Of a DNA stretch of 64,000 nt, positions 42,779 to 64,000 are shown one piece after another (the stretch's first letter is position 1; every line of letters starts with the position of its first letter). Where the stretch lies: the NCBI RefSeq assembly GCF_004348735.1, contig NZ_SMKT01000016.1:1-64000 (forward strand). The letters are read 5' to 3'. Made by a program: the position numbers and the translations under genes. This DNA comes from Actinomadura sp. KC06 (GTDB lineage: Bacteria > Actinomycetota > Actinomycetes > Streptosporangiales > Streptosporangiaceae). The notes under the pieces were generated by a model, which did no database searches, was not told the DNA's origin, and saw nothing but the letters and a program-made list of their open reading frames with translations.

Positions 42779-42818
42779 CCGAAGCCCCCTGCCGTCGGAC
42801 GAGGTAAGGAGTGCGAGC

Positions 42819-43529: not shown

Positions 43530-44887
43530 CAGTGGCCGAAGGAGCCGTCCCCGGCTTCTCCGACATTGACCTGACGGCACTCGGGGACCAGTTCGGCACC
43601 CCGCTGTACGTCGTATCGCTCGACCGCCTGCGCGATAATGCCGCCACGCTCTCAACGGCTCTGAAACCGGCCGCGGTACAACTGCTCTACTCGTTGAAGA
43701 CCAATTACCTGCCCGCCGTCGTTACCACGCTGGCGGCCGAGGGCCTCGGCGTGGACGTCGTGTCGGGTTATGAACTCCGCACGGCCCTGGATTGCGGGCT
43801 GCCCGGCGAACGGATCGTGTTCAACGGCCCGGTCAAGACCGATGAGGAATTGGCCGAAGCGGTTCGGCACGGAGTCTTCGTCAACATCGACGGCGTCGAG
43901 GAGATAGCCGTCCTGGCCCGGCTCGCCGCCCGGCGGGGGAAGGGGCCGCTGCCGGTCGGCCTGCGGGTGTACCCACCGCACAACGTCTTCGCCGAACCTG
44001 GCGGGCCGGTCGAACGCGCGCTGCCGTCGAAGTTCGGCTGGCCGATCGCGGACGGCGCCGCGGACCAGGTCGTCGAGAAGATCATGGCCGAGCCCGCGCT
44101 CCGGCTGACCGGCGTGCACTGCCATCTCGGGTCCCAGATCGTCCGGACCGGCAACCTGCTGGCGGCGCTGGATGCCGTGTGCTCCTGGGCCGTACGGTTG
44201 CGGACTCGCGCGGAACTGACCGTTCTCAACATCGGCGGCGGGTTCGGCGTCGAGGGCATACACCGGATCCCTGGCGCGGTCGCGTCGCTCAGCGAGGTAC
44301 GGGCTGGCGGGCAGGCCGGGCCACCGTCCGCCCAACGGCCGCGCTTCGACCTTGAGCTGTTCGCACAAGGACTCACCGAGACGCTGCGTCGTCACCACCT
44401 CGGTGACCTCACCGTGTTCGCCGAGCCCGGCCGCGCCCTGGTCTCCGCGGCAGGAGTCCTGCTGACGCGCGTGGTCGGCGAAAAGAACCTCGGCGACCAC
44501 CGCTGGATCCTGCTGGACGGCGGGCTCAACCTGCTGCCGACCGCCGGCGTCGCCGAGGCGCATTCCTTCACGCCGCTCGTCCCGGACTCCGGCCGCCTGC
44601 GGCCCTGCCTCGTCGGTGGGCCGCTCTGCTATGAGGGCGACGTCTTCGGCATCGACATCGACCTGCCGGAAACGCTCCAGGTCGGGGACTACGTCGCCGT
44701 CCAGGACGCCGGCGCCTACGGGTTCTCCCGCGCCACCAGCTTCAACCGGCTCCGTCCGGCGACGGTGACGGTGTCCGGCCAGACCGCCGAGCTCGCCTGG
44801 CGGGCCGAGACCCACGAAGACCTGATGAGCGCGGCGGTACCGGTTCGCGCGGCCCGCTCGACCGTCCAGAGGGGACGCGCATTGTGA
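43526..44887 (+). CDS. PLP-dependent decarboxylase, diaminopimelate/ornithine type (fold III)
   Basis: 453 aa. The PLP Lys lies in LLYSLKTNYLPAVV, the ring contact in VHCHLGSQI, the phosphate loop in LNIGGGFG and FAEPGRALV. The catalytic Cys region reads GGPLCYEGDVFG, where lysA-type enzymes usually have CESGD. The altered residues suggest a substrate other than meso-diaminopimelate. Start and stop overlap both neighbours by 4 bases. Confidence 0.85.
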   Translation: MTVAEGAVPGFSDIDLTALGDQFGTPLYVVSLDRLRDNAATLSTALKPAAVQLLYSLKTNYLPAVVTTLAAEGLGVDVVSGYELRTALDCGLPGERIVFNGPVKTDEELAEAVRHGVFVNIDGVEEIAVLARLAARRGKGPLPVGLRVYPPHNVFAEPGGPVERALPSKFGWPIADGAADQVVEKIMAEPALRLTGVHCHLGSQIVRTGNLLAALDAVCSWAVRLRTRAELTVLNIGGGFGVEGIHRIPGAVASLSEVRAGGQAGPPSAQRPRFDLELFAQGLTETLRRHHLGDLTVFAEPGRALVSAAGVLLTRVVGEKNLGDHRWILLDGGLNLLPTAGVAEAHSFTPLVPDSGRLRPCLVGGPLCYEGDVFGIDIDLPETLQVGDYVAVQDAGAYGFSRATSFNRLRPATVTVSGQTAELAWRAETHEDLMSAAVPVRAARSTVQRGRAL

Positions 44888-45741
44888 GCGACAATTCCCG
44901 CACTTTGCGACAACGATCGCCAGGAGTTGACTCCGATCCGATCCCGGCCAGGGTGCCCGTCCAAGTGAGTTCGGACGAGATGGCCGCGCCCGCTGTGGCG
45001 CTTTGGGCCGTGCCGCGCTCGGTGTCCACCGCACTTGAGAAGAGCCTGTCACAGCATCCGGAAATCGAGCCCGTCCACGAGCCGTTCACCGACTGCTACT
45101 ACTTCAGCGACCAACGCCGGAGCGACCGGTACGGCGATCAGCCGCACAAACTGTCGTACGGAATGCCCGACGTGCATACGCAACTCCAGGCGATTACCGC
45201 TCCCATCCCGCTCATCAAGGACCTCTGCTTTCAAGCCGAGCCGTACGTGCCCAGCGACCGCCTAGCCACCTGGACCAACATTTTCGTGGTCCGCCACCCG
45301 GCTCGGGTATGGCTTTCGCTCAGCCGGCTCAAGCCTGACTTCACCGAGGACGAGTTCGGCTTCACCGCACTGAACCGGATGTGGATTCGGGTGGTGGAGG
45401 AGCTGGGTCACCCCGGCCGCATCGTGGAGGGTGACCGCTTCCGGATGCAACCCAAGCGCGTCCTTCTCGACCTGTGCCACTGGCTGGGCCTGAGCTTCGA
45501 CACCTGCATGACGAACTGGATCGACGGCAGAATCAGGCACTGGTCACCGGACGAGCGCGACTCCCAGCAGAAATGGCATCGGGTACTCGAAGGCAGCCGC
45601 GGCGTCCTCCCTCCCGACCCCGAGCTGCCGCCGGACTGGGAGCCGATGGAGCCGGATCCGTTGCGGCGGCGCATATACGACCAGGCGGTCGAAGTTCACG
45701 ACCACATCATGGGCCTCGGTCAGATTGCCGGTGCGGCATAA
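44884..45741 (+). CDS. Sulfotransferase-like P-loop protein
   Basis: 285 aa. A PAPS-type 5' phosphosulfate loop is visible in LWAVPRSVSTALEKSLSQHP and the 3' phosphate region in NIFVVRHPARVWLSLSRL. This suggests O- or N-sulfation of the operon product, but related proteins without proven activity are common. GTG start overlapping the decarboxylase stop. It converges on the glutamine synthetase homologue. Confidence 0.75.
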   Translation: MSDNSRTLRQRSPGVDSDPIPARVPVQVSSDEMAAPAVALWAVPRSVSTALEKSLSQHPEIEPVHEPFTDCYYFSDQRRSDRYGDQPHKLSYGMPDVHTQLQAITAPIPLIKDLCFQAEPYVPSDRLATWTNIFVVRHPARVWLSLSRLKPDFTEDEFGFTALNRMWIRVVEELGHPGRIVEGDRFRMQPKRVLLDLCHWLGLSFDTCMTNWIDGRIRHWSPDERDSQQKWHRVLEGSRGVLPPDPELPPDWEPMEPDPLRRRIYDQAVEVHDHIMGLGQIAGAA

Positions 45742-50688: not shown

Positions 50689-51791
50689 GAAAGGTCCCCC
50701 TGGTGCAGGCGCAGTTTCCCCGTCTCCGAGCGGTCGATCCGGTCGATCAACCGCACCTTCCGGGGCCGTATGTCGAACTGTGCGGCGGCGATCCGTACGG
50801 CCCCCTCCGTCAGCGCGGTCCCCGCATCCCGGGCGGGGACGACGAGCAGGTCCAGATGCTCGCCGCTCAGCTCGTCGGGGACGGGCAGGACGGCCAGGTC
50901 GGCGCACGGCACCGCCGAACGCAGCCCTTCCTCGAGGCCGTCGAGGTTGACCCGGCGTCCGTTGATCTTCACGAGACGTCCGCGGCGGCCGGTGAACCGG
51001 AACCGGCGGGCGTCCACGGGTTCGACGAAATCGTCCGTCCGCCACATCGCCGGGGGGCGGCCGCCCGCCCGGAACGCCAGCCGGGGGCTGCTCACCTCGA
51101 GCGGCACCTCGCCGCCGCCCGGTCTCTGCGGCGCCGCGAACGCCACGTCGGGGAACAGCTCCCAGGGGCCGTCGTCGCCCGTCCAGGTCCGGGTGGCGAT
51201 GCCGCCGGCCTCGGTGGAGCCGAAGACCTCGACGATGCGCAGGCGGTCGGCGCCGACCGCCGCGCGCAGCTCCGCCGCGGGCGCGGGCAGCGACGCCGTG
51301 CTGTGCAGGATGGTCAGCCGCCGGACGGCGCGGACCCAGGCGTGGTTCCGGCGCAGGATGGCGAAGGTCCACGGGACGGCGATCACGGCCCAGTTCGCCT
51401 GTTCGGGGGGCGGCATCGTGCCGAAGAACCGCGGCCGGTACCAGGTGCGGACCCCCAGCTTCGCGGGAGCGAGAACGGTCGCCAGCGCACCGAACAGGTG
51501 GCGCGGCGGAGCGAACGACAGGACGGCCTGCGGCTCACCGGGCCGGAGCAGGTCGGCGAGCAGCCCAGCCTCGGCCCACATCTGCTCGCGCGTGCGGCGC
51601 CAGGTCTGGCCCGTCCCCGTGGTGCCGGAAGTGCGCAGATCCACCGTCTCCGGAAGCACGTTCCGCACGTCCTCTGCGGAACCCCCCGTCTCACCGGCAT
51701 CGTCCCACCGCACGTGCCACGGCTCCTCGGAATGCCGTGCCGCGGTGGGGTCGGCCAGGAGCGCGGCCGGGCTCAGCTCCGGGTACGTCAT
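50685..51791 (-). CDS. Short AMP-forming adenylating enzyme
   Basis: 368 aa, shorter than the usual 500 or more of the ANL superfamily. ATP motif VDLRTSGTTGTGQTWRRTRE, acyl-adenylate motif VEVFGSTEAGGIATRTW, hinge TGRRGRLVKINGRRVNLDGL and C-terminal Lys in RSETGKLRL are present. The missing length is at the N-terminus. It is placed between the ACP and the ammonia-lyase with 4-base overlaps on both sides, so it likely loads coumarate or a similar acid onto the ACP (inference). Confidence 0.8.
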   Translation of the reverse strand: MTYPELSPAALLADPTAARHSEEPWHVRWDDAGETGGSAEDVRNVLPETVDLRTSGTTGTGQTWRRTREQMWAEAGLLADLLRPGEPQAVLSFAPPRHLFGALATVLAPAKLGVRTWYRPRFFGTMPPPEQANWAVIAVPWTFAILRRNHAWVRAVRRLTILHSTASLPAPAAELRAAVGADRLRIVEVFGSTEAGGIATRTWTGDDGPWELFPDVAFAAPQRPGGGEVPLEVSSPRLAFRAGGRPPAMWRTDDFVEPVDARRFRFTGRRGRLVKINGRRVNLDGLEEGLRSAVPCADLAVLPVPDELSGEHLDLLVVPARDAGTALTEGAVRIAAAQFDIRPRKVRLIDRIDRSETGKLRLHQGDLS

Positions 51792-52048
51792 GGGGTGGCC
51801 GATCCGTTCACCGCGAGATCGACGACCTGCAGGAGGTCGTGCACGGTTCGCACCCCGGCCAGGCCCTCGTCCGGGATCTCGGTGGCCAGCCGCTTCTGGG
51901 TCTCGAACACGACCTCGACCACCGACAGGGAATCCAGGCCGAGATCCTCGATCAGATCGCAGTCCGACCGGACCTCGGCCGCGGGCACGCCCGTGACTTC
52001 CTCGACGACGGTCGCCAGTAAAGGCAGGTGATTCGTTTCTGCGGCCAT
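51788..52048 (-). CDS. Acyl carrier protein
   Basis: 86 aa four-helix carrier. The phosphopantetheine Ser lies in DLIEDLGLDSLSVVEVVFE. GGAGGGAG precedes the ATG. It stands between the ketosynthase and adenylating enzyme genes as their carrier. It differs from the second carrier at 60686, so the two acyl arms probably use separate carriers. Confidence 0.9.
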   Translation of the reverse strand: MAAETNHLPLLATVVEEVTGVPAAEVRSDCDLIEDLGLDSLSVVEVVFETQKRLATEIPDEGLAGVRTVHDLLQVVDLAVNGSATP

Positions 52049-53354: not shown

Positions 53355-53397
53355 GGAATTGTTGTATTCCGAGTATTGGGTGGCTATGGTGCGAACC

Positions 53398-54357
53398 ATG
53401 TCGCAGAATAGAGCCAAAGTCGGCCTGCGCCAGCTTTTCCCCGACGGGGACTACTACGTGGTTGCCGACGACCAAGAACTCGTTGACTACGCCATCGAGT
53501 TGGGAGCGCGAGCGATCCACCTCGATCAGGCCGCCGAGCTTCCTGACGGCATCGGAACGGCAGTGTTCCTGCGCAACACATTGGTCACCAGGGACATCCG
53601 CCGGACGTTCCGCAAGTCCCGCTCGTTCGTGATACCGATTTCCAGCTTCGATTCCGGCATGGAGGTCGCCAAGTACACGATGCGTTTGGTCCTGCTCACC
53701 GATTACGAAAAGGCGTGTGACTACAATCGCTACTGGGCCAAGAGCGTTGCCGAGCAGCCGGGCGACCTGATCTTCTACTCCGACGACATGCATCTCAGGT
53801 GCACGCTGTCGGAGAAGCTCAACGCCAACGCCTGGCTGGACGCCGCGATCGACCCGGGCAAGTGGGTCAGCGTCGGGAGCTACACCGAGTTCTCGATCAC
53901 CGCGCCCTCGTCCAAGGACTGGCTCGGCGCGTTCGTCCTGAACGGGACCCTCGTCGCCCAGGGTTCGCTGGTGGCCCAGGACGCGCGGGCCGACGAGACG
54001 GGCGTGGCGAGGATCCGCGAGGCCTGGAAGGTGCGCGACGAGCTGGTGGCCAACGCCCCGATCACGGTGGAGTTGCACGAGGGCCGGGCCACCTCGATCC
54101 GCGCCGGCGGCCATGACTTCACCGACGCCGTCCGCGAGGTGACCAACCCCGATTACAACCTGCACACGCTGGAGCTCGGCCTCGGCACCAACATGAGCCT
54201 GCTGCCGCATGTGGACTGGCGGCACAACTCCCAGCTCAACGAGGGCGCCGGCACCGTCCATCTGGGATTCGGGGAGGGCATGACCGGCGCCCATATGGAC
54301 TTTGTCGTGGCCGACTGTTCTCACAAATTCGAACAGACCGGAAAGGAGGTGAACTAA
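53398..54357 (+). CDS. M29-family aminopeptidase-like metalloenzyme
   Basis: 319 aa, shorter than typical M29 aminopeptidases (about 400). Likely metal ligands of the fold are kept: Glu164 (SYTEFS), Glu259 (LELGLGTN), His288 (TVHLGFG) and His299-x-Asp301 (GAHMDFV). The same fold also includes NicX-type Fe dioxygenases, so peptidase activity is not certain. ATG 53398 was chosen; ATG 53386 and TTG 53359 are in frame and no ribosome site is strong. Its stop touches the ATG of precursor peptide 1, whose ribosome site lies within this gene. It is a candidate maturation or leader-trimming enzyme (inference). Confidence 0.75.
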   Translation: MSQNRAKVGLRQLFPDGDYYVVADDQELVDYAIELGARAIHLDQAAELPDGIGTAVFLRNTLVTRDIRRTFRKSRSFVIPISSFDSGMEVAKYTMRLVLLTDYEKACDYNRYWAKSVAEQPGDLIFYSDDMHLRCTLSEKLNANAWLDAAIDPGKWVSVGSYTEFSITAPSSKDWLGAFVLNGTLVAQGSLVAQDARADETGVARIREAWKVRDELVANAPITVELHEGRATSIRAGGHDFTDAVREVTNPDYNLHTLELGLGTNMSLLPHVDWRHNSQLNEGAGTVHLGFGEGMTGAHMDFVVADCSHKFEQTGKEVN

Positions 54358-54489
54358 ATGCGTGATCTCACGCTTACCGATCAGTCATGGGCGGTGGACG
54401 AGGAGGGCGAAGACCTCGACGTCGAGCGCTTCGAGGTGACCGACTCGGTCGAGGCTGCCGGAGTCGCCTACTTCTACGCGAGAATCTGA
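54358..54489 (+). CDS. RiPP-like precursor peptide 1
   Basis: 43 aa, acidic, with AGGAGG 8 bases before the ATG. It starts MRDLTLTDQSWAVDEEGED and ends VEAAGVAYFYARI. It shares 25 identical positions with the 42-aa peptide at 63245, including QSW, RF, VEAA and the C-terminal V-x-Y-x-Y-A-R-I. This is the plan of a leader (conserved acidic N-terminal part) plus a short Tyr-rich core. A 15-bp hairpin follows directly. No known RiPP family is recognised. It is coupled to the M29-like gene and followed by an amidohydrolase gene. Confidence 0.75.
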   Translation: MRDLTLTDQSWAVDEEGEDLDVERFEVTDSVEAAGVAYFYARI

Positions 54490-54495
54490 TCCAGA

Positions 54496-54539
54496 GTGTA
54501 CGCGAGGTGCCGGCCGGTAGGCGTGCACCTCGCGTACAC
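54496..54539 (+). terminator. Hairpin after precursor peptide 1
   Basis: GTGTACGCGAGGTGC and GCACCTCGCGTACAC form a perfect 15-bp stem with a 14-base loop, followed by GTTTCT, starting 7 bases after the stop. It probably limits read-through into the amidohydrolase gene or stabilises the precursor mRNA. Confidence 0.8.
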
Positions 54540-54572
54540 GTTTCTACGGTTACCCGTCCGAGGGGTGGCAAA

Positions 54573-55856
54573 ATGAGCGAACGCTACATGGTGATCTCAT
54601 CCGATTGTCACGGCGGGGCTGACCTGCTCGGCTACCGTGACTACCTTGACCCGGTATACCGCGAGGAATTCGACGCCTGGGCGGCCGGCTACGAGATTCC
54701 CTACGAGGATCTGAAGGGCGAGGACGGTACCCGGAACTGGGACTCCGACCGCCGCCTGCGTGAGCTGGAGAACGATGGAATCGTGGCCGAGGTCATGTTC
54801 CCCAACACCGTTCCTCCCTTTTTCTCCGCCTCTTCGCTGGGCAGCCAGCATTTCAGCGAGTCGGCTGCGGACCTGCAACGGCGCTGGGCCGGCCTGCGGG
54901 CGCACAACCGCTGGCTGGCCGATTTCTGCGCGGAGGCCAAGGGGCGCAGGACCGGGGTCTTCCAGGTCATGCTCTTCGATATCGACGAGGCCGTCGCCGA
55001 GGTGCGCTGGGCGGTCGAGGCCGGGCTGCGCGGCGGGCTGCTGCTTCCCGGCACGCCGCCCGGGTCGGGCCTGCCTCCGCTCTACTACCACGACTACTAC
55101 GGGCCGCTTTGGCGGACCTGCGCCGAACTGGGCGTCCCGATCAACGTGCACAGCGGAGGCGCCGGGCCCCGCACCGGCGACCGTCCCGAGGACCATGTGC
55201 TGTTCATGCTGGAACTGCGCTGGTGGGACCAGCGCACGCTGCGCCACCTGATCCTCGGCGGAGTGCTGGAGCGCAACCCCGAGCTCAAGATCATATTCAC
55301 CGAGGAGGGGCTGGGCTGGATCCCCAATCAACTGCGCGGCATGGACGGATTCATCGACACCATGCGGCGCAGCGACACCCGCTCCGATGAACTGACCCAC
55401 GGCGCCGCGGTGGCGGCGAACCTTTCACTGCGCCCGAGCGAATATTGGCAGCGCCAATGCCATGTGGGCGCCAGCTTCATGCACCGGGCCGAAACGGCGA
55501 TCAGGGAATCCGTCGGCGTCCGTAGCATCATGTGGGGCAGCGACTACCCCCATGTCGAGGCGAGCTATCCCTTCTCCCCGGAGGCCATCCGGTTCAGCTA
55601 CGCGGGAGTACCCGAGGCAGAGGTCGAAATGATGCTCGGGGGCACCGCGGCCGAACTCTTCGGCTTCGATCCGGAATTCCTGGCGCCGATTGCCGACCGG
55701 GTAGGGCCTCGCCGCACGGAAGTGACCGCCGGTATCGATCCGCGGACCCTGCCCGCCGAGGCCGCCAAATGCCCGGCCTTCGCCGGGATCCTCACCGGAT
55801 CCGGACGCGAGCGCTGGGCAGACAACCGCGCCGCACAGGAGGGCAAAGCGGGATAG
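54573..55856 (+). CDS. Amidohydrolase family protein (amidohydrolase-2/ACMSD type)
   Basis: 427 aa TIM-barrel metal enzyme. Motifs are VISSDCHGGADLLGYRDYL, GVPINVHSGGA and the catalytic Asp in MWGSDYPHVEASYPF. Relatives hydrolyse or decarboxylate small acids. In bottromycin biosynthesis an unrelated-sequence amidohydrolase acts on the peptide, so a peptide role is imaginable. Directly downstream of precursor 1 with AGGGGTGG before the ATG. Confidence 0.85.
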   Translation: MSERYMVISSDCHGGADLLGYRDYLDPVYREEFDAWAAGYEIPYEDLKGEDGTRNWDSDRRLRELENDGIVAEVMFPNTVPPFFSASSLGSQHFSESAADLQRRWAGLRAHNRWLADFCAEAKGRRTGVFQVMLFDIDEAVAEVRWAVEAGLRGGLLLPGTPPGSGLPPLYYHDYYGPLWRTCAELGVPINVHSGGAGPRTGDRPEDHVLFMLELRWWDQRTLRHLILGGVLERNPELKIIFTEEGLGWIPNQLRGMDGFIDTMRRSDTRSDELTHGAAVAANLSLRPSEYWQRQCHVGASFMHRAETAIRESVGVRSIMWGSDYPHVEASYPFSPEAIRFSYAGVPEAEVEMMLGGTAAELFGFDPEFLAPIADRVGPRRTEVTAGIDPRTLPAEAAKCPAFAGILTGSGRERWADNRAAQEGKAG

Positions 55857-55936
55857 GCCGTCCGGACATCCGCCTGTTCGCGCCATTCCGCCCGTTCCTG
55901 CCGCTCCGGCTGTTCGCGCCGCTCCGGCCGGACGTT

Positions 55937-57211
55937 TCACCCGGGCTTGAACATGGCGGTGAGCGTCCCGAGCGCGGGCACGATCTCCTGCGGCGTCGGT
56001 CGGCTCATCATCTCCGCCCGCAACCGGCCGGCGCCTTCGCCGAACTGCGGCTCGGCCAGCAACCGCAGCAGGCCCTGCCGTATCTCCTCGCCTGTGACGG
56101 TGGCCATGGGGGCGGCCAGCCCGGCGCCGCAGTCGGCGATGCGGTGGCCCAGGAACGGGGCGTCGAACTGTTCGTGCAGAACCAGCTGGGGCACCGGCCC
56201 GGAGATCGCGATCGTGCAGATCGTGCCCCAGCCGCCGTGGTGGATGGCGGCCGCGCAGCTCTGGACGAGAGCGTGCAGCGGCACGTAACCCACCAGCCTG
56301 ACATTGGCGGGTACCGGGCCGATCGCGGCCCTGTCGGCGTCCGGCGCGGTGGCCACCAGCTCGATGTCCAGATCCGCCAGGGCGTCGAAGATCTCGCCGA
56401 GCGAAATCGAGTACCCGCCGAACCGGTCGGTGGCGCTCGTGCCCAGCGTGAGGCAGACGCGGGGCCGTTCCGGCTGCTCCCACACCCACCGTTCGACCAC
56501 GCTCACCCCGTTGTACGGCACGTACCGCATGGGGACGTAGGGCAGCGGCAGGTCGAGCTGCAGCATCGGCGGGAGCTGGTCGAGCGTGAAATGCCCGGTG
56601 GTCATCTCTTCGGAGAAGCCGCCGCCGAACTTCCGCGCCCACTGATCGAGCCACTCGGCCAGCATGTCGGGGCGGTCGCCCTCGGGACGGAGGTCGTTGA
56701 GCCGCCGGTAGTGCCCGCGCATCTGGCCGAACAGGTCGACGCTCCAGAGCAGCCGGGCGTGCGCGGCGCCGCAGGCGTTCGCCGCGATCGGACCGGCGAA
56801 CGTCGCGGGCTCCCAGATCACCAGGTCGGGGCGCCAGGCCCGGCAGAACTCCGTGAGTTCCTCGATCATCGGATCGTTCGCCAGCCGCCACCACCAGGGC
56901 ACGACACGGTCGTAGCCGTTCTTGAGCGCCTCCCAGGTGATCTCCTCCGGGGGCGTCTCGGCCATGTCGAAGGGCGGCAGCCTCCCGTCGCGCACCAGCT
57001 CGAACACGTCGGGGTGCAGCTGCAGCGTCCGCCAGAGGCTGTGATCCCGCCCGACCGGGACGGCCGTCAGGCCCGCGCGGGTGACGGTGTCCACCAGCTC
57101 CGGCTGCGCGGCCACCCGCACTTCGTGGCCGGCGACGGTCAGCGCCCAAGCCAGCGGAACCATCGAGAGGAAATGTGTTCTTTCTGCGTATGAGACGAAA
57201 ACGAACCGCAT
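55937..57211 (-). CDS. Glycosyltransferase, macrolide/EryCIII type
   Basis: 424 aa GT-B enzyme. The N-terminus MRFVFVSYAERTHFLSMVPL binds acceptor. The C-terminal nucleotide-sugar region has GTSATDRFGGYSISLGEIFD and the donor motif CAAAIHHGGWGTICTI. This family transfers dTDP-deoxyaminosugars to natural products. Its neighbours RmlA, RmlB and a DesVI-like N-methyltransferase support such a donor. Only 24 bases separate it from the divergent RmlA gene. Confidence 0.88.
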   Translation of the reverse strand: MRFVFVSYAERTHFLSMVPLAWALTVAGHEVRVAAQPELVDTVTRAGLTAVPVGRDHSLWRTLQLHPDVFELVRDGRLPPFDMAETPPEEITWEALKNGYDRVVPWWWRLANDPMIEELTEFCRAWRPDLVIWEPATFAGPIAANACGAAHARLLWSVDLFGQMRGHYRRLNDLRPEGDRPDMLAEWLDQWARKFGGGFSEEMTTGHFTLDQLPPMLQLDLPLPYVPMRYVPYNGVSVVERWVWEQPERPRVCLTLGTSATDRFGGYSISLGEIFDALADLDIELVATAPDADRAAIGPVPANVRLVGYVPLHALVQSCAAAIHHGGWGTICTIAISGPVPQLVLHEQFDAPFLGHRIADCGAGLAAPMATVTGEEIRQGLLRLLAEPQFGEGAGRLRAEMMSRPTPQEIVPALGTLTAMFKPG

Positions 57212-57235
57212 TCTTCGAGAGTACCCTCAGCGCCT

Positions 57236-58117
57236 ATGAAAGGCATCATCCTGGCCGGTGGAAACGGCACAAGAATGTATCCGCTCACCCTCGCCTGCTG
57301 TAAGCAGTTGCTTCCCGTCTATGACAAGCCGATGATTTTCTACCCGCTCTCGGTGCTGATGCTGGCCCGGATAGGGGAGATCCTGGTCATCTCCACTCCG
57401 AGCACGACGCCGAGCCTGCGCGATCTCTTCGGCGATGGTTCGCACCTCGGCCTGGACATCGGCTATGCGGTCCAGGACGAGCCGCGGGGAATCGCCGACG
57501 CGCTGCTGATCGGCGCCGACCACATCGCCGGCGACGACTGCGCGCTGATCCTCGGGGACAATATCTTTCACGGCGCCCGTTTCACCGACATGCTCGCCGC
57601 GAGCCGCGCCGCCAACCACGGCTGCACGCTCTTCAGCTACCCGGTCACTGATCCGGAGCGGTATGCGGTCGCCGAACTCGGCTCCGCGGGGGAGTTGCTG
57701 TCGATCGTCGAGAAACCCCTGCACCCCCGTTCGGAGAACGCCATCACCGGGCTTTATCTGTACGACCGGGAAGTCGTCGAGATCGCCCGGGGAATCCGCC
57801 CGTCCAGCCGTGGCGAACTGGAGATCACCGATGTGAACCGGGCCTACCTGGACGCAGGGCGGGCCCGCCTGGTCGAGCTCGGCAGGGGCTTCACCTGGCT
57901 GGACGCGGGCACTCCCGAATCGCTGCTGGAGGCGGCCGAGTACGTGCGCACCCTGGAGAACCGGCAGGGGATCAGCGTCGCGTGCATCGAGGAGATCGCA
58001 TTGCGCATGGGATTCATCGATGCGGAGCAGTGTTTCCGGCTGGGCTCGGAACTGGGCGCCTCGAATTACGGCAGGTACGTCATGGAAGTCGCCGCGGAAA
58101 TATCCGCCGCCCATTGA
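57236..58117 (+). CDS. rmlA: Glucose-1-phosphate thymidylyltransferase
   Basis: 293 aa, the short RmlA/RfbA form. Signature GIILAGGNGTRMYPLTLACC followed by KQLLPVYDKPMIFYPLS, product-site LILGDNIFHG, VEKP and TWLDAGTPESLLEA. It makes dTDP-glucose, the first step of deoxysugar formation. It is transcribed with RmlB 13 bases downstream. Confidence 0.95.
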   Translation: MKGIILAGGNGTRMYPLTLACCKQLLPVYDKPMIFYPLSVLMLARIGEILVISTPSTTPSLRDLFGDGSHLGLDIGYAVQDEPRGIADALLIGADHIAGDDCALILGDNIFHGARFTDMLAASRAANHGCTLFSYPVTDPERYAVAELGSAGELLSIVEKPLHPRSENAITGLYLYDREVVEIARGIRPSSRGELEITDVNRAYLDAGRARLVELGRGFTWLDAGTPESLLEAAEYVRTLENRQGISVACIEEIALRMGFIDAEQCFRLGSELGASNYGRYVMEVAAEISAAH

Positions 58118-58130
58118 GCAGACTTGACCC

Positions 58131-59099
58131 ATGCGAATCCTCATCACCGGCGGCGCCGGTTTCATCGGATCGAATTTCGTGCGCCGCACGCTCACGGGCG
58201 CATACCCGGGGCTGCGCGGCGCCCATGTCACGGTGCTCGACCTGCTCACGTACGCGGGAAATCGCGACAACCTCGCGCCGGTCGCCCGCCATCCCGCGAT
58301 GACCTTCCGGCAGGGCGATATCGCCGACGAGAAACTCGTCCGCGACCTGATGCGGGACGTCGAACTCGTCGTCCATTTCGCGGCCGAGACCCATGTCGAC
58401 CGGTCCATCGAGGGCGGGCACCGGTTCGTCGCCACCAATGTGCTCGGGACCCACACTTTGCTCGACGCCGCCCGGCAGGCCGGCGTACCGAAGATCGTGC
58501 AGATCTCCACCGATGAGGTGTACGGCTCCATCTCCGCGGGCTCATGGACCGAGGACGAGCCGTTGCTGCCCAATTCGCCTTATTCGGCGTCCAAGGCGGC
58601 CGCCGATCTCCTCGCCCGCGCCCAGCACAGCACCCATGGACTGCCGGTCTGCATCGTGCGTCCGTCCAACGGCTACGGCCCTTACCAGTTCCCCGAAAAG
58701 CTGATCCCGCTGTTCGTCACCAGCCTGCTGGACGGGCTGACGGTGCCGCTCTACGGCGACGGCGGCCACATCCGCGAGTGGCTCCACGTCGACGACCTCT
58801 GCCGGGCCGTGGCCCTCGTCGCCGAGCGCGGGCTGCCCGGCGAGGTCTACAACGTGGGCGGCGAAAGCGAGCTGACCAACCTGGAACTGACCGAGACGCT
58901 GCTCCGGCTGACCGGGCGCGAGCGGTCCCTGGTGCGGCGGGTGCCCGACCGCCTCGGCCATGACCGGCGTTACTCCATGGCCACCGAGAAGATCGCCCGG
59001 CTCGGCTTCCGGCCGCGGATCGCCCTCGCCACCGGGCTCGCCGCGACCGTGCGCTGGTACGCCGCGCATCGTGCCTGGTGGGAGCCGTTAAGAGGGTGA
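58131..59099 (+). CDS. rmlB: dTDP-glucose 4,6-dehydratase
   Basis: 322 aa extended short-chain dehydrogenase. The NAD fold is ILITGGAGFIGSNFVRR, the active site has STDEVYGSI and YSASKAAADLL (Tyr-x3-Lys), and HVDRSIEG matches RmlB. It produces dTDP-4-keto-6-deoxyglucose. No RmlC, RmlD or sugar aminotransferase is in the window, so later steps must lie to the right or elsewhere. Confidence 0.95.
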   Translation: MRILITGGAGFIGSNFVRRTLTGAYPGLRGAHVTVLDLLTYAGNRDNLAPVARHPAMTFRQGDIADEKLVRDLMRDVELVVHFAAETHVDRSIEGGHRFVATNVLGTHTLLDAARQAGVPKIVQISTDEVYGSISAGSWTEDEPLLPNSPYSASKAAADLLARAQHSTHGLPVCIVRPSNGYGPYQFPEKLIPLFVTSLLDGLTVPLYGDGGHIREWLHVDDLCRAVALVAERGLPGEVYNVGGESELTNLELTETLLRLTGRERSLVRRVPDRLGHDRRYSMATEKIARLGFRPRIALATGLAATVRWYAAHRAWWEPLRG

Positions 59100-59111
59100 T
59101 CCGCTGTCCTG

Positions 59112-59164
59112 CCGGCGGGACACCGGCCCGGCTCGGGGGGCCGGGGCGCCCGGTGCCCGCCGGG
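59112..59164. terminator. Compound hairpin between rmlB and the TylF-like gene
   Basis: CCGGCGGGACACCGG pairs with CCGGTGCCCGCCGG, and inside it CCCGGC faces GGCCGGG. It lies between convergent stops and can serve both strands. Confidence 0.65.
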
Positions 59165-59179
59165 CCGGTTCGCCTCGTC

Positions 59180-59962
59180 TCAGGCGCTGCGGCGCCAGTA
59201 GCCGCCGGCCTGGTCGATCCGTTCGATCGGGTCGTCGATGCCGTGCGCGGCGCGGTAGTCGCGGACCGCGAGACGGCAGGGCGCCAGATCGAAGTAGTCG
59301 TCGACGATCACGAAGCCGCCCACCTGGAGCTTCGGGTACAGGTGGACGAGGGCGTCGTGGGTGGACTCGTACAGGTCGCCGTCCATGCGCAGCACCGCGA
59401 GCCGTTCGATCGGCGCGCCGGGCAGCGTGTCGCGGAACCAGCCCTTGAGGAAGGCCACCTGGTCGTCGAGCAGGCCGTAGCGGCGGAAGTTCTCCTCGAC
59501 GGTGGCCAGGTCGACCCCGAGCAGGTCGTTGAGGACGTGCAGCGGGGCGCCGCGGTCGGCCGGGTAGCGCCGCCCGTCCGGCTCCGGCAGGCCCTCGAAG
59601 GAGTCGGCCACCCAGACCACGCGATCCCGGACGCCGTGGGCGGCCAGCACCGCCCGCATGAAGATGCTGGCGCCGCCCCGCCAGACGCCGGTCTCGATGA
59701 GATCCCCCGGGACGCCGTCCGCGATGACCCGCTCCACGCACATCTGCACGTTGTCCAGGCGTCTGAGGCCGATCATCGTGTGCGCCACGCTCGGCAGGTC
59801 CGCGCCCGCCGCCCGCAGGTCCGTGTCGAATCCGCGCTGTTTCCGAATTCCGGACCTGACCTCTTCCCAGGAGTCGCCGAACCAGATATCGGCGTCCTGA
59901 TAGATCGTGTTCGCGACCGTCCGTTTAACCAGATCCAGATAGAGCTCGCGTGGTGTTCTCAT
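59180..59962 (-). CDS. TylF/MycF-type O-methyltransferase
   Basis: 260 aa. Family start TPRELYLDLVKRTVANTIYQ, SAM site GDLIETGVWRGGASIFMRAV, ADSFEGLP, the metal-binding RMDGDLYESTHDAL and VIVDDYF. TylF and MycF methylate sugar hydroxyls of macrolides, and relatives act on other hydroxyls. It could decorate the deoxysugar or the aryl group. Only 17 bases separate it from the divergent DesVI-like gene. Confidence 0.9.
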   Translation of the reverse strand: MRTPRELYLDLVKRTVANTIYQDADIWFGDSWEEVRSGIRKQRGFDTDLRAAGADLPSVAHTMIGLRRLDNVQMCVERVIADGVPGDLIETGVWRGGASIFMRAVLAAHGVRDRVVWVADSFEGLPEPDGRRYPADRGAPLHVLNDLLGVDLATVEENFRRYGLLDDQVAFLKGWFRDTLPGAPIERLAVLRMDGDLYESTHDALVHLYPKLQVGGFVIVDDYFDLAPCRLAVRDYRAAHGIDDPIERIDQAGGYWRRSA

Positions 59963-59979
59963 GCTGTTATTATCGCGCC

Positions 59980-60693
59980 ATGTTCGGTGCTGATATGGCC
60001 GAGGTATACGAATTCATCTATCGTGCCCGGGGTAAGGACTGGGAGGCGGAGGCCGACGAACTCACCCGGCTCATCAAGTCCCGGAAGCCGACCGCCCACT
60101 CCTTGCTCGATGTCGCCTGCGGCACGGGGGCGCATCTGGCGGCGCTGCGAAAGTCGTTTCCGGATACGGCCGGTGTGGAGATTTCCGAACCGATGCTGAT
60201 GCGCGCGCGAGAACGGCTGCCCGGTGTGTCGATTCACCAGGCCGACATGCGCGATTTCCGGCTCGGCCGGACATTCGACGTCGTGACGTGCCTGTTCACC
60301 GCCATCGGCTACGTGCCGACGGTCGCCGACCTGCGCAGCTCCGTCGCGTGCATGGCCGATCACCTGGTGCCCGGCGGGGTGTTGTGCATCGAGCCCTGGT
60401 GGTTCCCGGAGCGCTTCATCGAGGGTTATGTGGCCGGAGACGTGGCGCGCGAGGACGGCCGGATCGTCGCCCGGGTCTCCCGGTCCACCCGGGAGGGCGC
60501 GGCCACCCGCATGGAATTACGCTTCATCGTCGCCGACAGCGCCGGCCTGCGTGAATTTACCGAGATCGACCGCATCTCCCTGTTCACCGAGCAGGAATAC
60601 CTGGATGCGTTCGCCCGCGCGGATTGCAAAGCGGAGTATCTCGATGGAATGTTAACGGAACGCGGCCTATTTATCGGGAGGCGCCGTGCTTGA
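59980..60693 (+). CDS. DesVI/TylM1-type aminosugar N-methyltransferase
   Basis: 237 aa. The sequence follows the desosamine N,N-dimethyltransferase DesVI, as remembered, over its whole length: the start AEVYEFIYRARGKDWEAEA, SLLDVACGTGAHL, QADMRDFRLGR, CIEPWWFPERFIEGYVAGDV and RGLFIG at the end. Such enzymes methylate a dTDP-3-amino-trideoxysugar. This implies an aminosugar product although no aminotransferase is visible. It overlaps the ACP gene by 8 bases. Confidence 0.9.
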   Translation: MFGADMAEVYEFIYRARGKDWEAEADELTRLIKSRKPTAHSLLDVACGTGAHLAALRKSFPDTAGVEISEPMLMRARERLPGVSIHQADMRDFRLGRTFDVVTCLFTAIGYVPTVADLRSSVACMADHLVPGGVLCIEPWWFPERFIEGYVAGDVAREDGRIVARVSRSTREGAATRMELRFIVADSAGLREFTEIDRISLFTEQEYLDAFARADCKAEYLDGMLTERGLFIGRRRA

Positions 60694-60955
60694 CAATCAG
60701 GTGACCGGGCAACTCGATCAGACGGAGTTGGAAGCGCGGTTGCGGGAGATCGTGGTCGACGTCTGCGAGGCCGACGCGGCGACCGTCGAGTCGATGACAC
60801 TGGGCGATCTCGACTCCTTCACCTTCGTGCAACTCGTGCTGGAAGTCGAGCATCAGCTGAACGTCCTGGTGCTCGAGGACCTGGTCGAATTCTCCGGGCG
60901 CACGTTCGAAGATCTCGCCGTATTCATTCTGAAGCAGAGCGGGAAGGCGGGATGA
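60686..60955 (+). CDS. Acyl carrier protein, second copy
   Basis: 89 aa. Helical carrier with the phosphopantetheine Ser in MTLGDLDSFTFVQLVLEVE, where DSF replaces the usual DSL. GTG start overlapping the methyltransferase stop; the stop overlaps the GNAT start (ATGA). With the fatty acyl-AMP ligase two genes on, it forms a loading pair. Confidence 0.85.
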   Translation: MLDNQVTGQLDQTELEARLREIVVDVCEADAATVESMTLGDLDSFTFVQLVLEVEHQLNVLVLEDLVEFSGRTFEDLAVFILKQSGKAG

Positions 60956-61503
60956 CGTTGTTCTTCCCTTACCTGGAGACCAAGCGGATCCGGCTGGTGC
61001 CGGCGGCGGAGCAGGACGCCCGGATCCTGTACGGCCTGCTCCTGCGGCTCGGCATGGCGAGCCTGCCCACCCTCGACGAGTTCATGAAGGCCACGGCCGG
61101 CGGCGTCGCCGCGCGCTTCCTCGTCCAGCGGCAGGACGACGGCGAGACGGTGGGCTACAGCTCCCTGCACCAGATGGTCCCCGCCGCCGGTCATGTCGAG
61201 GCCGGCATCTACCTCGACCCGGAGCACATCCGGAGCGGCCTCGGCGCCGAGGCCAGCACCCTCACCCTCAACTACGCCTTCGCGACCTGGAACGTCCGCA
61301 AGGTCTACTTCCAGACCACCGAGGCGAGCTTCGACGACTTCGGCCCGCTGCTCGACGTGCTGACCAAGGAGGCGGTCCTGCCGAACCACGTCTTCTTCCG
61401 GGGGCGGTTGTGGGACGTCCACATCTACGCCGTCTACCGGGAGGAGTGGGAGCAGACCGGCGAGACGTTCGTCTCCCGCCTCGCGCTGAGACGAGACCCA
61501 TGA
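60952..61503 (+). CDS. GNAT-family acyltransferase, RimJ/RimL type
   Basis: 183 aa. The start YLETKRIRLVPAAEQDARIL and the acyl-pantetheine loop EHIRSGLGAEASTLTLNYAF (R-x-x-G-x-G) identify the fold. Encoded between an ACP and a fatty acyl-AMP ligase with 4-base overlaps at both ends. The simplest reading is that it moves the ACP-bound acyl chain to an amine. GNAT enzymes acylate peptides in goadvionin-type RiPPs, and a precursor peptide gene lies 1.7 kb downstream (inference). Confidence 0.82.
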   Translation: MTLFFPYLETKRIRLVPAAEQDARILYGLLLRLGMASLPTLDEFMKATAGGVAARFLVQRQDDGETVGYSSLHQMVPAAGHVEAGIYLDPEHIRSGLGAEASTLTLNYAFATWNVRKVYFQTTEASFDDFGPLLDVLTKEAVLPNHVFFRGRLWDVHIYAVYREEWEQTGETFVSRLALRRDP

Positions 61504-63212
61504 CCACCGTCAGCGGCACCACCGTCAGCGGCGAGCTGCTCACCGACGCGATCCGCCGGAACGCCCGGGCGTATCCGGACCGGCCGGCGATGGTGTTCGG
61601 AGGCGGCGGACGGCTGCGCGAGCCGGCCGAGACGCTCACCTACGGGCGCCTCGACGAGCGGGCCCGGGCGGTCGCGGCGGAGCTGCGCCGGCGGTGTTCC
61701 CCGGGCGACCGCGCCGTCCTCCTCTGCGCGCACGACGCCGGCTATCCGGTCGCGTTCCTGGCCTGCCTGTACGCCGGTGTCGTCGCCGTGCCCCTTTACG
61801 CTCCCGAGCTGATCCGGAGCCGCGAACGGCTGCTGTCGGTCATCGGCGACTGCGCGCCCGCCGCGGTTCTCACCACCACACAGGCGATCAAGTACGTCTC
61901 GCGAGCGCTGCAGGAGCTGCGGCACCGGGAGCCGTTGGCCCTGGCCGCGAGCCTGATCGACGTCCACGCGGTACCGCCCGCGGAGGGACGTGCCTGGCGC
62001 GGTCCGGATCTCTCGGGGGACGCCCTGGCCTACTTGCAGTACACCTCGGGATCCACCGGAACGCCCACCGGCGTGCGCATCACCCACGCCAACCTGGCCG
62101 TCACCGGGCACCAGATGCGGGTCCACTTCCCCGACTGCAGGGTGACCGCCTCCTGGGTTCCGTTCTTCCACGACATGGGGCTGATCTGCGGTATCGCCTG
62201 GCCGCTGAGCAGCGGCGTCCGTTCCGTCCAGCTCAGCCCGGAGGCGTTCCTCCGGGAGCCGCACCGCTGGCTCCAGCTGATCTCCGAGCACCGCGCCGAG
62301 TGCAGCATCACACCGAACTTCGGGCTGGTCCACTGCGTGCGCCGGGTGACCGATGAGCAGAAGAGCACGCTCGATCTGTCCTCGCTGCGGACGCTGCACA
62401 TCGCTGGAGAGCCGGTGCGGGCCGACTCGGTACGGGCGTTCGCCGACGCGTTCGCCGCGTGCGGGCTCGACCCCTCGGCTCTCGCTCCCAGCTACGGCCT
62501 GGCGGAGGCCACGCTTGCGGGCACCGCACCGGAGATCGGGGCGCCGGTCGCGGTACGCCGGTTCGACCGCCGGGCGCTCGCCGACGGGCTGGTCCGGCCG
62601 GCCGCCGCCGCCGACACGGCGGTGGAGCTCGTCGGTTGCGGTGTGCCCGCGGCGGGGCTGTCGGTACGGATCACCGACCCCGACGCGCCCGGCCGGGCGC
62701 TGCCCGCCGACCGGGTCGGAGAGATCGCGCTATCCGGCCCCAACATCGCCGACGGTTACTGGAACCTGCCGGAACGCTCCGCCGAGGTGTTCGCCGGAGG
62801 CGGCGTGCGAACCGGTGACCTCGGGTTCGAGCACGACGGACATCTGTACATCGTCGGGCGGACGAAGGACGTCATCATCGTCCGCGGCCGCAACCATCAT
62901 CCGACCGACATCGAGGCGACGGCGGGACGGCCGGGCCTGACGGCGGTCGCCTTCTCGGCGGCCGGCACGACGGCGGTCGATGAGGAGGAGAGGCTGGTCG
63001 TCCTCCTGGAGGCCGGTCCGGAGACGCCGCATCTGAGCGCGGCCGTCCAGCAGGTGCGCGAGGACATCGCCCGTCACCACGGCCTTGTCGTCCACGACCT
63101 GCTGATCGTGCGCAGGGGCAGCCTTCCGAGGACGACCAGCGGCAAGATCCGCCGGGGCGCCTGCCGGGACAGGTATCTCGGCGGACGGCTTGCCATCGCA
63201 CCAGCGAAGTGA
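61500..63212 (+). CDS. Fatty acyl-AMP ligase (FAAL)
   Basis: 570 aa. The ATP motif is LQYTSGSTGTPTGVRITHAN. The FAAL-typical block has SWVPFFHDMGLICGIAWPL, LREPHRWLQLISEHRAECSI and TPNFGLVHCVRRV, with GDLGFEHDGHLYIVGRTKD and a C-terminal TTSGKIRR. FAALs activate a free fatty acid as acyl-AMP and pass it to an ACP instead of CoA. The adjoining ACP and GNAT genes complete an acyl-transfer module. Confidence 0.9.
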   Translation: MTTVSGTTVSGELLTDAIRRNARAYPDRPAMVFGGGGRLREPAETLTYGRLDERARAVAAELRRRCSPGDRAVLLCAHDAGYPVAFLACLYAGVVAVPLYAPELIRSRERLLSVIGDCAPAAVLTTTQAIKYVSRALQELRHREPLALAASLIDVHAVPPAEGRAWRGPDLSGDALAYLQYTSGSTGTPTGVRITHANLAVTGHQMRVHFPDCRVTASWVPFFHDMGLICGIAWPLSSGVRSVQLSPEAFLREPHRWLQLISEHRAECSITPNFGLVHCVRRVTDEQKSTLDLSSLRTLHIAGEPVRADSVRAFADAFAACGLDPSALAPSYGLAEATLAGTAPEIGAPVAVRRFDRRALADGLVRPAAAADTAVELVGCGVPAAGLSVRITDPDAPGRALPADRVGEIALSGPNIADGYWNLPERSAEVFAGGGVRTGDLGFEHDGHLYIVGRTKDVIIVRGRNHHPTDIEATAGRPGLTAVAFSAAGTTAVDEEERLVVLLEAGPETPHLSAAVQQVREDIARHHGLVVHDLLIVRRGSLPRTTSGKIRRGACRDRYLGGRLAIAPAK

Positions 63213-63244
63213 AAGCCGAGAAACGGGAAGGAGGTGGAAGGATC

Positions 63245-63373
63245 ATGCGCGAGCTCACCATCGCGGAACAGTCGTGGTCGGTGGACGACGACGGCGACGA
63301 CGAGGTGACGAGGTTCGACTCCGACGACATCGTCGAGGCGGCGGCCGTCTACTACACCTACGCCAGGATCTGA
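63245..63373 (+). CDS. RiPP-like precursor peptide 2
   Basis: 42 aa. AAGGAGG lies 10 bases before the ATG. It begins MRELTIAEQSWSVDDDGDD and ends VEAAAVYYTYARI, matching precursor 1 (54358) at 25 positions with one gap. It is acidic until the last ten residues, which are aromatic and basic. A 16-bp hairpin starts 7 bases after the stop, the same layout as precursor 1. The second copy, 8.8 kb away, shows that the conserved residues are under selection. Confidence 0.75.
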   Translation: MRELTIAEQSWSVDDDGDDEVTRFDSDDIVEAAAVYYTYARI

Positions 63374-63380
63374 ATGCCCA

Positions 63381-63420
63381 GGGCGGGTGGGGGCGGTGGC
63401 GACGCCGCCCCCACCCGCCC
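63381..63420. terminator. Hairpin after precursor peptide 2
   Basis: GGGCGGGTGGGGGCGG and CCGCCCCCACCCGCCC form a perfect 16-bp GC stem with an 8-base loop. It also stands at the end of the convergent oxidoreductase gene, so it probably serves both strands. Confidence 0.82.
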
Positions 63421-63430
63421 GAGCGACCGC

Positions 63431-64000
63431 TCATCGCGCGGCGTCGATGATCGCGGGCGCGACCTTGTCCATGAACCTCTCCAGGTCCCGGACTCCGCCG
63501 GCGGGATCCATCATCTGGATCACGAAATGCTCGACGCCCAGCAGGCGGTCGGCCCGCAACTCCTCGGCGATCATCTGCGGTGGACCGATCAACGCCTGGT
63601 CGTGCGGGACGACCTGACGGGAGAAGGCCATCGAGTAGTTGACCGACACGCGGGCCGGGCCGGCCAGGGGGATGAGGTCCGGGAGCCGGTGCCGGTCGGG
63701 GGCCCAGCAGTTCCACCAGTCGGCCCGTTGCCTGACCAGTTCCATGGTCTTCGGACCCGTCCCCCCGATGTAAAGCGGCACCGGTTGCTGCACGGCGGGA
63801 GGGCCGGCCATGGCGTCCCGGACGGTGAAGTGCTCCCCTTCGTAGTCGACCGAAGCGCCGGTGGCCATGGCCCGGACGATCTCGATGGTCTCGCCGAGCT
63901 TCTCCCTGCGGATCCGCGGAGGGTCATGGCTGAGCCCGAGCCCGGTCAGTTCCGAGGGGGACGAGCCCCAGCCGAGCCCGAGATTGAGCCGGCCCTCGCT
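63431..64000 (-). CDS. LLM-class flavin/F420-dependent oxidoreductase (partial)
   Basis: The C-terminal about 190 residues; the gene continues beyond the right edge. Features of the luciferase-like TIM barrel are GRLNLGLGWGSSPSELTGLG, RREKLGETIEIVRAMATG and PLYIGGTGPKTMELVRQRAD. Actinobacterial members commonly use F420H2 or FMNH2 for reduction or hydroxylation. It is convergent with precursor 2 and may be part of the cluster. Confidence 0.85.
   Translation of the reverse strand, partial: SEGRLNLGLGWGSSPSELTGLGLSHDPPRIRREKLGETIEIVRAMATGASVDYEGEHFTVRDAMAGPPAVQQPVPLYIGGTGPKTMELVRQRADWWNCWAPDRHRLPDLIPLAGPARVSVNYSMAFSRQVVPHDQALIGPPQMIAEELRADRLLGVEHFVIQMMDPAGGVRDLERFMDKVAPAIIDAAR

What the first reader, a model, noticed from the sequence alone, without database searches (positions are those of the whole stretch)
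54358..63373. Two paralogous small precursor-like peptides inside a tailoring-rich cluster
Genes at 54358-54489 and 63245-63373 encode 43 and 42 aa peptides with 25 identical positions: MR(D/E)LT, QSW, VD, RF, VEAA and a terminal V-x-Y-x-Y-A-R-I. Both have near-consensus ribosome sites and each is followed within 7 bases by a perfect 15-16 bp hairpin. Conserved leader, Tyr-rich tail and hairpin are what RiPP precursors look like. No lanthionine, YcaO, radical SAM, lasso or P450 gene is in the window, so this would be a RiPP class I do not know.
Basis: partly seen in the sequence, partly recalled or inferred. Interest (0 to 1): 0.93.

Follow-up and report, generated by a model that had tools for sequence, protein, structure and literature searches.

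The report
Crocagin-like peptide cluster with swapped oxygenase
An actinomycete bacterium carries two sister genes for tiny peptides in one cluster with a relative of the crocagin protein CgnB and an amidohydrolase-fold enzyme predicted to be an oxygenase; together they would likely make a modified peptide natural product by a route not described in the papers searched.

The parts
53386..54357 (+).
54358..54489 (+). precursor peptide 1, MRDLTLTDQSWAVDEEGEDLDVERFEVTDSVEAAGVAYFYARI
54496..54539 (+). hairpin between precursor 1 and the enzyme gene
54573..55856 (+). Amidohydro_2-fold enzyme, predicted dinuclear monooxygenase (ARO; PtmU3/AibH2 group)
   Evidence: PF04909; best PDB hits PtmU3 E 1.4e-34, DitZ E 8.3e-31; D11, H13, H193, E244, D324, H327, E329
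55937..57211 (-). EryCIII-type glycosyltransferase, activator-dependent family (TIGR04516)
57275..58117 (+). nucleotidyl transferase (likely sugar activation)
   Evidence: PF00483
58179..59099 (+). NDP-sugar 4,6-dehydratase/epimerase-type enzyme
   Evidence: PF16363
59180..59962 (-). TylF-type O-methyltransferase
   Evidence: PF05711 E 5.4e-106
59995..60693 (+). class I methyltransferase
   Evidence: PF13649
60686..60955 (+). acyl carrier protein-like (divergent)
   Evidence: PF00550 E 0.0036, below cut-off; DltC-like E 8.4e-4, below cut-off
60952..61503 (+). GNAT N-acyltransferase; its family recurs in 9 of 16 clusters
   Evidence: PF13302
61500..63212 (+). fatty acyl-AMP ligase (FAAL)-type protein
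   Evidence: PF00501, PF23024; best NCBIfam PRK05850 fatty-acid--AMP ligase, below its cut-off
63245..63373 (+). precursor peptide 2, MRELTIAEQSWSVDDDGDDEVTRFDSDDIVEAAAVYYTYARI
63381..63420 (+). perfect 16-bp hairpin after precursor 2
63431..64000 (-). luciferase-like monooxygenase, cut by the window end; a related gene follows the enzyme gene in L028, L029, L030 and L032
   Evidence: PF00296
49204..50688 (-). aromatic amino acid lyase of the divergent operon (possible acyl supply)
   Evidence: PF00221
50685..51791 (-). short AMP-ligase-like protein
   Evidence: PF00501 and PF13193, both below cut-off
51788..52048 (-). acyl carrier protein
   Evidence: PF00550
52070..53323 (-). stand-alone ketosynthase
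   Evidence: PF00109/PF02801

Best explanation
The two peptides are likely precursors of a crocagin-related RiPP, in which the neighbouring CgnB-type protein is predicted to hold the peptide's Tyr-rich C-terminal tail for a PtmU3-like dinuclear-metal monooxygenase that would hydroxylate it. Shown here: the peptides are a conserved family tied to the CgnB-type gene; that gene keeps all residues of the CgnB zinc site; the 'amidohydrolase' keeps the ligand residues of the dinuclear oxygenase group; and its presence beside the peptide follows the tail sequence YAR[IV]. Inferred from crocagin: the CgnB-type protein binds leader and tail (the QSW motif would be the leader signal), hands the tail to the oxygenase (in the role of the Fe/2-oxoglutarate enzyme CgnC), and its zinc site helps water loss and ring closure at the hydroxylated residue. 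Inferred from neighbours: after leader removal by an unidentified protease the new N terminus is acylated by FAAL, ACP and GNAT and the product is glycosylated; in related clusters a type I PKS would supply the acyl group, as in goadvionins.
For: CgnB/CgnE relationship by sequence and fold; zinc-ligand residues intact in 134 of 136 rows, as the crocagin paper reports for single-copy homologues. Co-occurrence: CgnB-like gene in 14 of 341 family genomes, peptide hits in the same 14. In all 17 peptides aligned, QSW and the tail Tyr are invariant. Enzyme: PtmU3 is the best hit among solved structures; DHHEDHE at the ligand positions in 14 of 14 cluster enzymes, matching the AibH2 ligands D25, H27, H211, E265, D337, H340 and the acidic D342/E313 said to mark dinuclear centres; the 5-carboxyvanillate decarboxylase 4icm has H for E244, Y for H327 and a gap for E329. 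Tail covariation: 12 of 12 clusters with the enzyme end YAR[IV], 0 of 4 without it (p 5e-4, or 0.014 with close relatives collapsed). Distant CgnB-like genes also sit by small ORFs with Tyr-containing tails...IIYANI and ...KAYVY in likely Streptomyces genomes, three KF(S/T)YAPE repeats in Deinococcus.
Against: No activity, transcript or product is known. No Rieske or ferredoxin reductase partner turned up among the genes I scanned (not all neighbours were scanned). The same ligand set with Asp at the last place is in 5 of 5 other PF04909 matches of this genome, so it marks a broad group, not this enzyme alone; the N-terminal DxH lies outside the HMM alignments to solved structures and the AlphaFold model of the enzyme was poor (48.6). 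The tail lacks the Tyr-Trp pair, and there is no second CgnB/E copy, that crocagin ring formation uses. The covariation rests on 4 negative clusters, found post hoc; L033 ends about 800 bases after its peptide, and the genomes of L033 and L040 each hold the enzyme in a second cluster. FAAL, GNAT and sugar genes vary between clusters. In two distant Streptomyces loci, one Deinococcus and one Thermus locus no such enzyme was found or annotated near the CgnB-like gene.
Confidence: 0.58

Rival explanations
1. Same RiPP, but the amidohydrolase-fold enzyme is a true hydrolase that works on the tail arginine (Arg to Orn) so that GNAT can acylate the side chain, as in selidamides.
For: The only cluster with Lys in place of Arg (YAKI, L033) keeps GNAT, ACP and PKS genes but has no such enzyme after the peptide. 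Selidamides use arginase, then hydroxylase, then GNAT on the Orn or Lys side chain (passages).
Against: Best-matching solved structures and the ligand pattern are those of dinuclear oxygenases, not hydrolases. Clusters L031, L034, L035, L036, L037 and L042 have Arg and the enzyme but no member of the GNAT family within the stretches read. No guanidine hydrolase of PF04909 is known to me (recall).
Confidence: 0.14
2. Same RiPP, but the enzyme acts later or on another substrate (acyl chain, sugar or released core), and the CgnB-type protein alone is the peptide-modifying component.
For: Four of 16 clusters have CgnB-type gene and peptide without it. PtmU3 accepts CoA-linked substrates.
Against: It follows the peptide gene directly in 12 of 16 clusters while PKS, GNAT and sugar genes come and go, and its presence tracks the tail sequence.
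Confidence: 0.18
3. The small proteins are not precursors but a structural or regulatory subunit of the CgnB-type protein or the oxygenase.
For: Both ends are strongly conserved, unusual for RiPPs with variable cores; acidic middle.
Against: Tandem duplicate genes, a hairpin after the last copy, homology of the partner to proteins shown to bind a precursor, tail changes that follow enzyme content, and the multi-repeat peptide in Deinococcus.
Confidence: 0.08

Closest known systems
Crocagin biosynthesis (CgnA/B/C/E, Chondromyces crocatus; PMC10070186)
   Same: CgnB-type M29-fold protein with all six zinc-ligand residues; short precursor with Tyr near the C terminus; a predicted oxygenase partner; a glycosyltransferase, as in all crocagin-like clusters of that paper other than crocagin's own
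   Different: Single CgnB/E copy; tail YAR[IV] without Trp; the conserved partner gene is a PF04909 enzyme and no dioxygenase gene was seen beside it; precursor acidic, not Lys/Arg-rich; FAAL/ACP/GNAT or PKS genes present
Amidohydrolase-related dinuclear oxygenases (PtmU3, AibH2, SfbO; PMC10811679, PMC10401708, PMC7782822)
   Same: PF04909 by sequence; all ligand positions, with Glu at the PtmU3 E313 place
   Different: Predicted substrate is a ribosomal peptide; no Rieske partner seen; activity not shown
Goadvionins and lipolanthines (polyketide-RiPP hybrids; passages of PMC9505594)
   Same: RiPP-like precursor beside PKS or acyl-ACP genes; the title of the goadvionin paper (seen in the reference list only) names an acyltransferase that joins polyketide and peptide
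   Different: No lanthionine-type enzyme among the genes scanned; CgnB-type protein and predicted oxygenase instead
Selidamides (passages of PMC9505594)
   Same: GNAT gene in a RiPP-like cluster; an Arg-linked enzyme
   Different: Precursor not related to PhaA as far as seen, no lanthionine synthetase among the genes scanned; the Arg-linked enzyme here is PF04909, not an arginase

Membership tests
CgnB/CgnE peptide-binding family (PF26231) | full-length sequence and fold similarity to CgnB/CgnE | tested here: met
   PF26231 precomputed on the window's own protein P0005; the Pfam copy scanned gave no family
CgnB/CgnE peptide-binding family (PF26231) | intact dinuclear zinc site in single-copy members | tested here: met
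   six of six ligand residues; 134 of 136 rows intact, ligands; metal binding itself not tested
CgnB/CgnE peptide-binding family (PF26231) | binds the precursor peptide | not testable with these tools
   needs a binding assay
Crocagin RiPP class | two CgnB/E copies within 2.1 kb | tested here: not met
   one match in the window genome
Crocagin RiPP class | precursor ending with Tyr-Trp core | tested here: not met
   YFYARI and YTYARI; none of 17 peptides has a C-terminal Trp
Crocagin RiPP class | CgnC Fe/2-oxoglutarate dioxygenase | tested here: inconclusive
   none beside the triad; a 2OG-Fe enzyme (PF10014) lies about 10 kb away at 42819-43529 in another gene group; the CgnC sequence itself was not at hand
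Amidohydrolase-related dinuclear oxygenase (ARO) | PF04909 domain with six ligands D-x-H, H, E, D-x-x-H | tested here: met
   positions; DxH placed by motif, not by an HMM-PDB alignment
Amidohydrolase-related dinuclear oxygenase (ARO) | extra acidic residue two after the last His (AibH2 D342 / PtmU3 E313) | tested here: met
   E329, 14 of 14 cluster enzymes; Asp there in 5 of 5 other PF04909 matches of the genome
Amidohydrolase-related dinuclear oxygenase (ARO) | O2-dependent C-H hydroxylation | not testable with these tools
   needs an enzyme assay
M29 aminopeptidase | sequence match to the Peptidase_M29 family | tested here: not met
RiPP in general | gene-encoded precursor modified after translation | not testable with these tools
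   genomic signs only:

The most novel reading that the evidence does not exclude
A RiPP class matured by an amidohydrolase-fold Fe2 or Mn/Fe monooxygenase that replaces the crocagin dioxygenase: it hydroxylates the beta carbon of the tail arginine, the CgnB-type zinc site expels water, and the guanidine closes on the new double bond to give a ribosomally encoded capreomycidine-like ring, which is then capped with a fatty or polyketide acyl chain by GNAT and glycosylated.
Probability: 0.12. Interest if true: 0.93.

Novelty: new variant of a known kind. Interest (0 to 1): 0.74.

Why it matters
CgnB and CgnE are called founding members of a new peptide-binding family, and the sections of their paper that I read report many single-copy homologues without naming their partner chemistry. 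This window and its relatives give a testable three-gene core (CgnB-type protein, precursor, PF04909 enzyme) with natural tail variants that follow enzyme content. If the enzyme acts on the peptide it would be the first such use of this dinuclear oxygenase group that I could find (none in the listings; one search listed 15 of 58 papers), and the CgnB fold would be a general adaptor that brings short tails to different oxygenases. Many of the clusters also look like RiPP-polyketide hybrids, a rare product type.

Tried and rejected

Literature: of PMC10070186 I read the abstract and sections 6-9, 12, 13; of PMC10811679 part 1 of 3; passages of PMC10401708, PMC7782822, PMC9505594, PMC10320115, PMC12710340; other papers only as search listings. 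antiSMASH 7 has a crocagin rule (passage). The supplementary peptide list of PMC10070186 could not be read, so some of these peptides may be listed there. Capreomycidine chemistry (VioC/VioD logic), the name LigW for the decarboxylase 4icm and the C39-type motif are recalled, not read.

Full report
Observation. The two ORFs are exactly where stated. They share 25 positions, far above shuffles, have strong ribosome sites, and each is followed by a long hairpin. The genome is likely an Actinomadura: genome G255 of the same genus has a contig of the same length (60,505) as the Actinomadura meyerae record behind L004.

Peptide and protein go together. In 341 genomes of the same family the CgnB-type gene is in 14 (the order search, 345 genomes, gave the same 14). 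A profile of 17 peptides gives 20 hits at E up to 0.01 in exactly those 14 genomes. Nineteen lie within about 450 bases downstream of the CgnB-type gene on the same strand (in G236:C56 that gene is interrupted); the twentieth is peptide 2 of the window, 8.9 kb away in the same cluster. The profile was built from peptides found next to the gene, so it could miss unlike ones, but no hit lies elsewhere.

Peptide anatomy. In all 17 peptides M, R, QSW and the tail Tyr are aligned invariantly. The middle is acidic and variable. The tail is [FY]-x-Y-A-R-[IV] in 13 of the 17 rows. Three clusters (L031, L034, L035) carry two tandem peptides. A stem of 10 bp or more follows the single or last peptide in 16 of 17 cases, not in L038, and does not follow the first peptide of the three tandem pairs; in the GC-rich L028 and L029 the fold is hardly stronger than shuffles (z -1.2, -1.1), elsewhere among the 16 z is -2.1 to -5.4. 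The role of the hairpin (protecting or attenuating the message) is inferred.

The enzyme after the peptide. The gene at 54573-55856 is PF04909, Amidohydro_2. Its best-matching solved structures are PtmU3 (E 1.4e-34) and DitZ (E 8.3e-31). PtmU3 and AibH2 are monooxygenases with a dinuclear metal site; the papers list D25, H27, H211, E265, D337, H340 in AibH2, and an acidic residue (D342; E313 in PtmU3) that marks dinuclear centres. The window enzyme has D11, H13, H193, E244, D324, H327 and E329, the same in 14 of 14 enzymes from these clusters (two of them are second copies in L036 and L037). In the alignment to the decarboxylase 4icm, E244 faces H, H327 faces Y and E329 a gap. As a control, the five other PF04909 matches of the same genome at E up to 1e-20 have the same set with Asp at the last place, so the pattern defines a broad dinuclear group and is not proof of this reaction. 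The DxH was placed by motif, because the alignments to solved structures start later.

Coupling of tail and enzyme. Of 16 clusters, 12 have the enzyme directly after the peptide and all 12 have a tail ending YAR[IV]. The four without it end YAKI (L033), YAS (L038), GGSS (L039) and YARP (L040). Fisher p is 5e-4, or 0.014 when close relatives are collapsed to four against four. The test was post hoc. L033 ends about 800 bases after its peptide, although an ATP-grasp gene that in L028, L029 and L032 comes two genes after the peptide sits right there. The genomes of L033 and L040 each have another cluster with the enzyme (L042, L041), so action in trans is possible.

Other genes. Within the stretches read (about 10 kb each side, less at contig ends) a KS or type I PKS is in 12 of 16 clusters and the GNAT family in 9 of 16. 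L028-L030, L032 and L033 share the order adenylation-type gene, GNAT, ACP, PKS, luciferase-like monooxygenase, thioesterase-like gene, ABC permease, CgnB-type gene, peptide; for one of them Pfam confirms ACP, PKS, luciferase-like and ABC permease, with GNAT just below its cut-off, while the adenylation- and thioesterase-type genes are named by eye. The window instead has FAAL, ACP, GNAT and a separate lyase, ligase, ACP, KS operon. Among these clusters the glycosyltransferase, dehydratase and small methyltransferase families are shared by the window and L038 only. The crocagin paper notes glycosyltransferases in all its other crocagin-like clusters.

Mechanism. In crocagin, CgnB and CgnE bind the precursor and the dioxygenase CgnC, and CgnB is proposed to use zinc for elimination after beta-hydroxylation of Tyr. 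The simplest transfer is: the CgnB-type protein presents the tail, the PF04909 enzyme hydroxylates it, the zinc site completes a ring or double bond. Which residue is changed is open. The covariation points to the Arg-Ile/Val end; the invariance points to Tyr. N-acylation by FAAL, ACP and GNAT is inferred by analogy with goadvionins (passages of PMC9505594). No reductase and no leader protease were identified.

Distant relatives hint that a Tyr-containing short tail is the common denominator: small ORFs ending HAIIYANI and KAYVY upstream of CgnB-type genes in two likely Streptomyces genomes, and an annotated Deinococcus plasmid protein with three KF(S/T)YAPE repeats directly upstream of its CgnB-type gene. 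These loci showed no PF04909 enzyme nearby.

Novelty. The protein family, single-copy homologues and putative precursors are in print. I found no paper that joins them with a PF04909 oxygenase (searches, as listings), but the supplementary list could not be read. I rate it a new variant of a known kind.

Noticed in passing
L072:5614-5910: Deinococcus plasmid protein with three near-identical KF(S/T)YAPE units directly upstream of a CgnB-type gene (27.5% identical to the window's): looks like a multi-core RiPP precursor of the same logic in another phylum; ends with CPCGTF.
   Followed up: partly
L071:5698-5955: Thermus thermophilus plasmid: unannotated ORF with FSYSYSVSYSW and a CPCG-containing end, upstream of a CgnB-type gene that is followed by ABC transporter genes.
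   Followed up: partly
L042 (G236:C56): Second cluster in the same genome with peptide and PF04909 enzyme but an interrupted CgnB-type gene (pieces in several frames): pseudogene or sequencing error.
   Followed up: no
L036:11775-13073 and L037:7257-8564: A second PF04909 enzyme (36-37% identical to the window's, same ligand set) sits about 1.5 and 4.5 kb from the CgnB-type gene in two clusters.
   Followed up: partly
L041:5875-5991: 38-aa peptide with a DDVVGG double-glycine-like leader beside a 754-aa transporter-like gene with a DCGPVS motif, next to the CgnB-type cluster: possibly another RiPP.
   Followed up: no
window 41699-45741: Group of ATP-grasp ligase (LAL_C2), 2OG-Fe_Oxy_2, Orn/DAP/Arg decarboxylase-like and sulfotransferase genes: looks like a separate small biosynthetic group.
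   Followed up: partly
L073: Four Streptomyces plasmid records carry a CgnB-type gene (26% identical over 71% of the query); in the one region opened it lies among adenylation-domain genes near an annotated enduracididine beta-hydroxylase (gntD).
   Followed up: no
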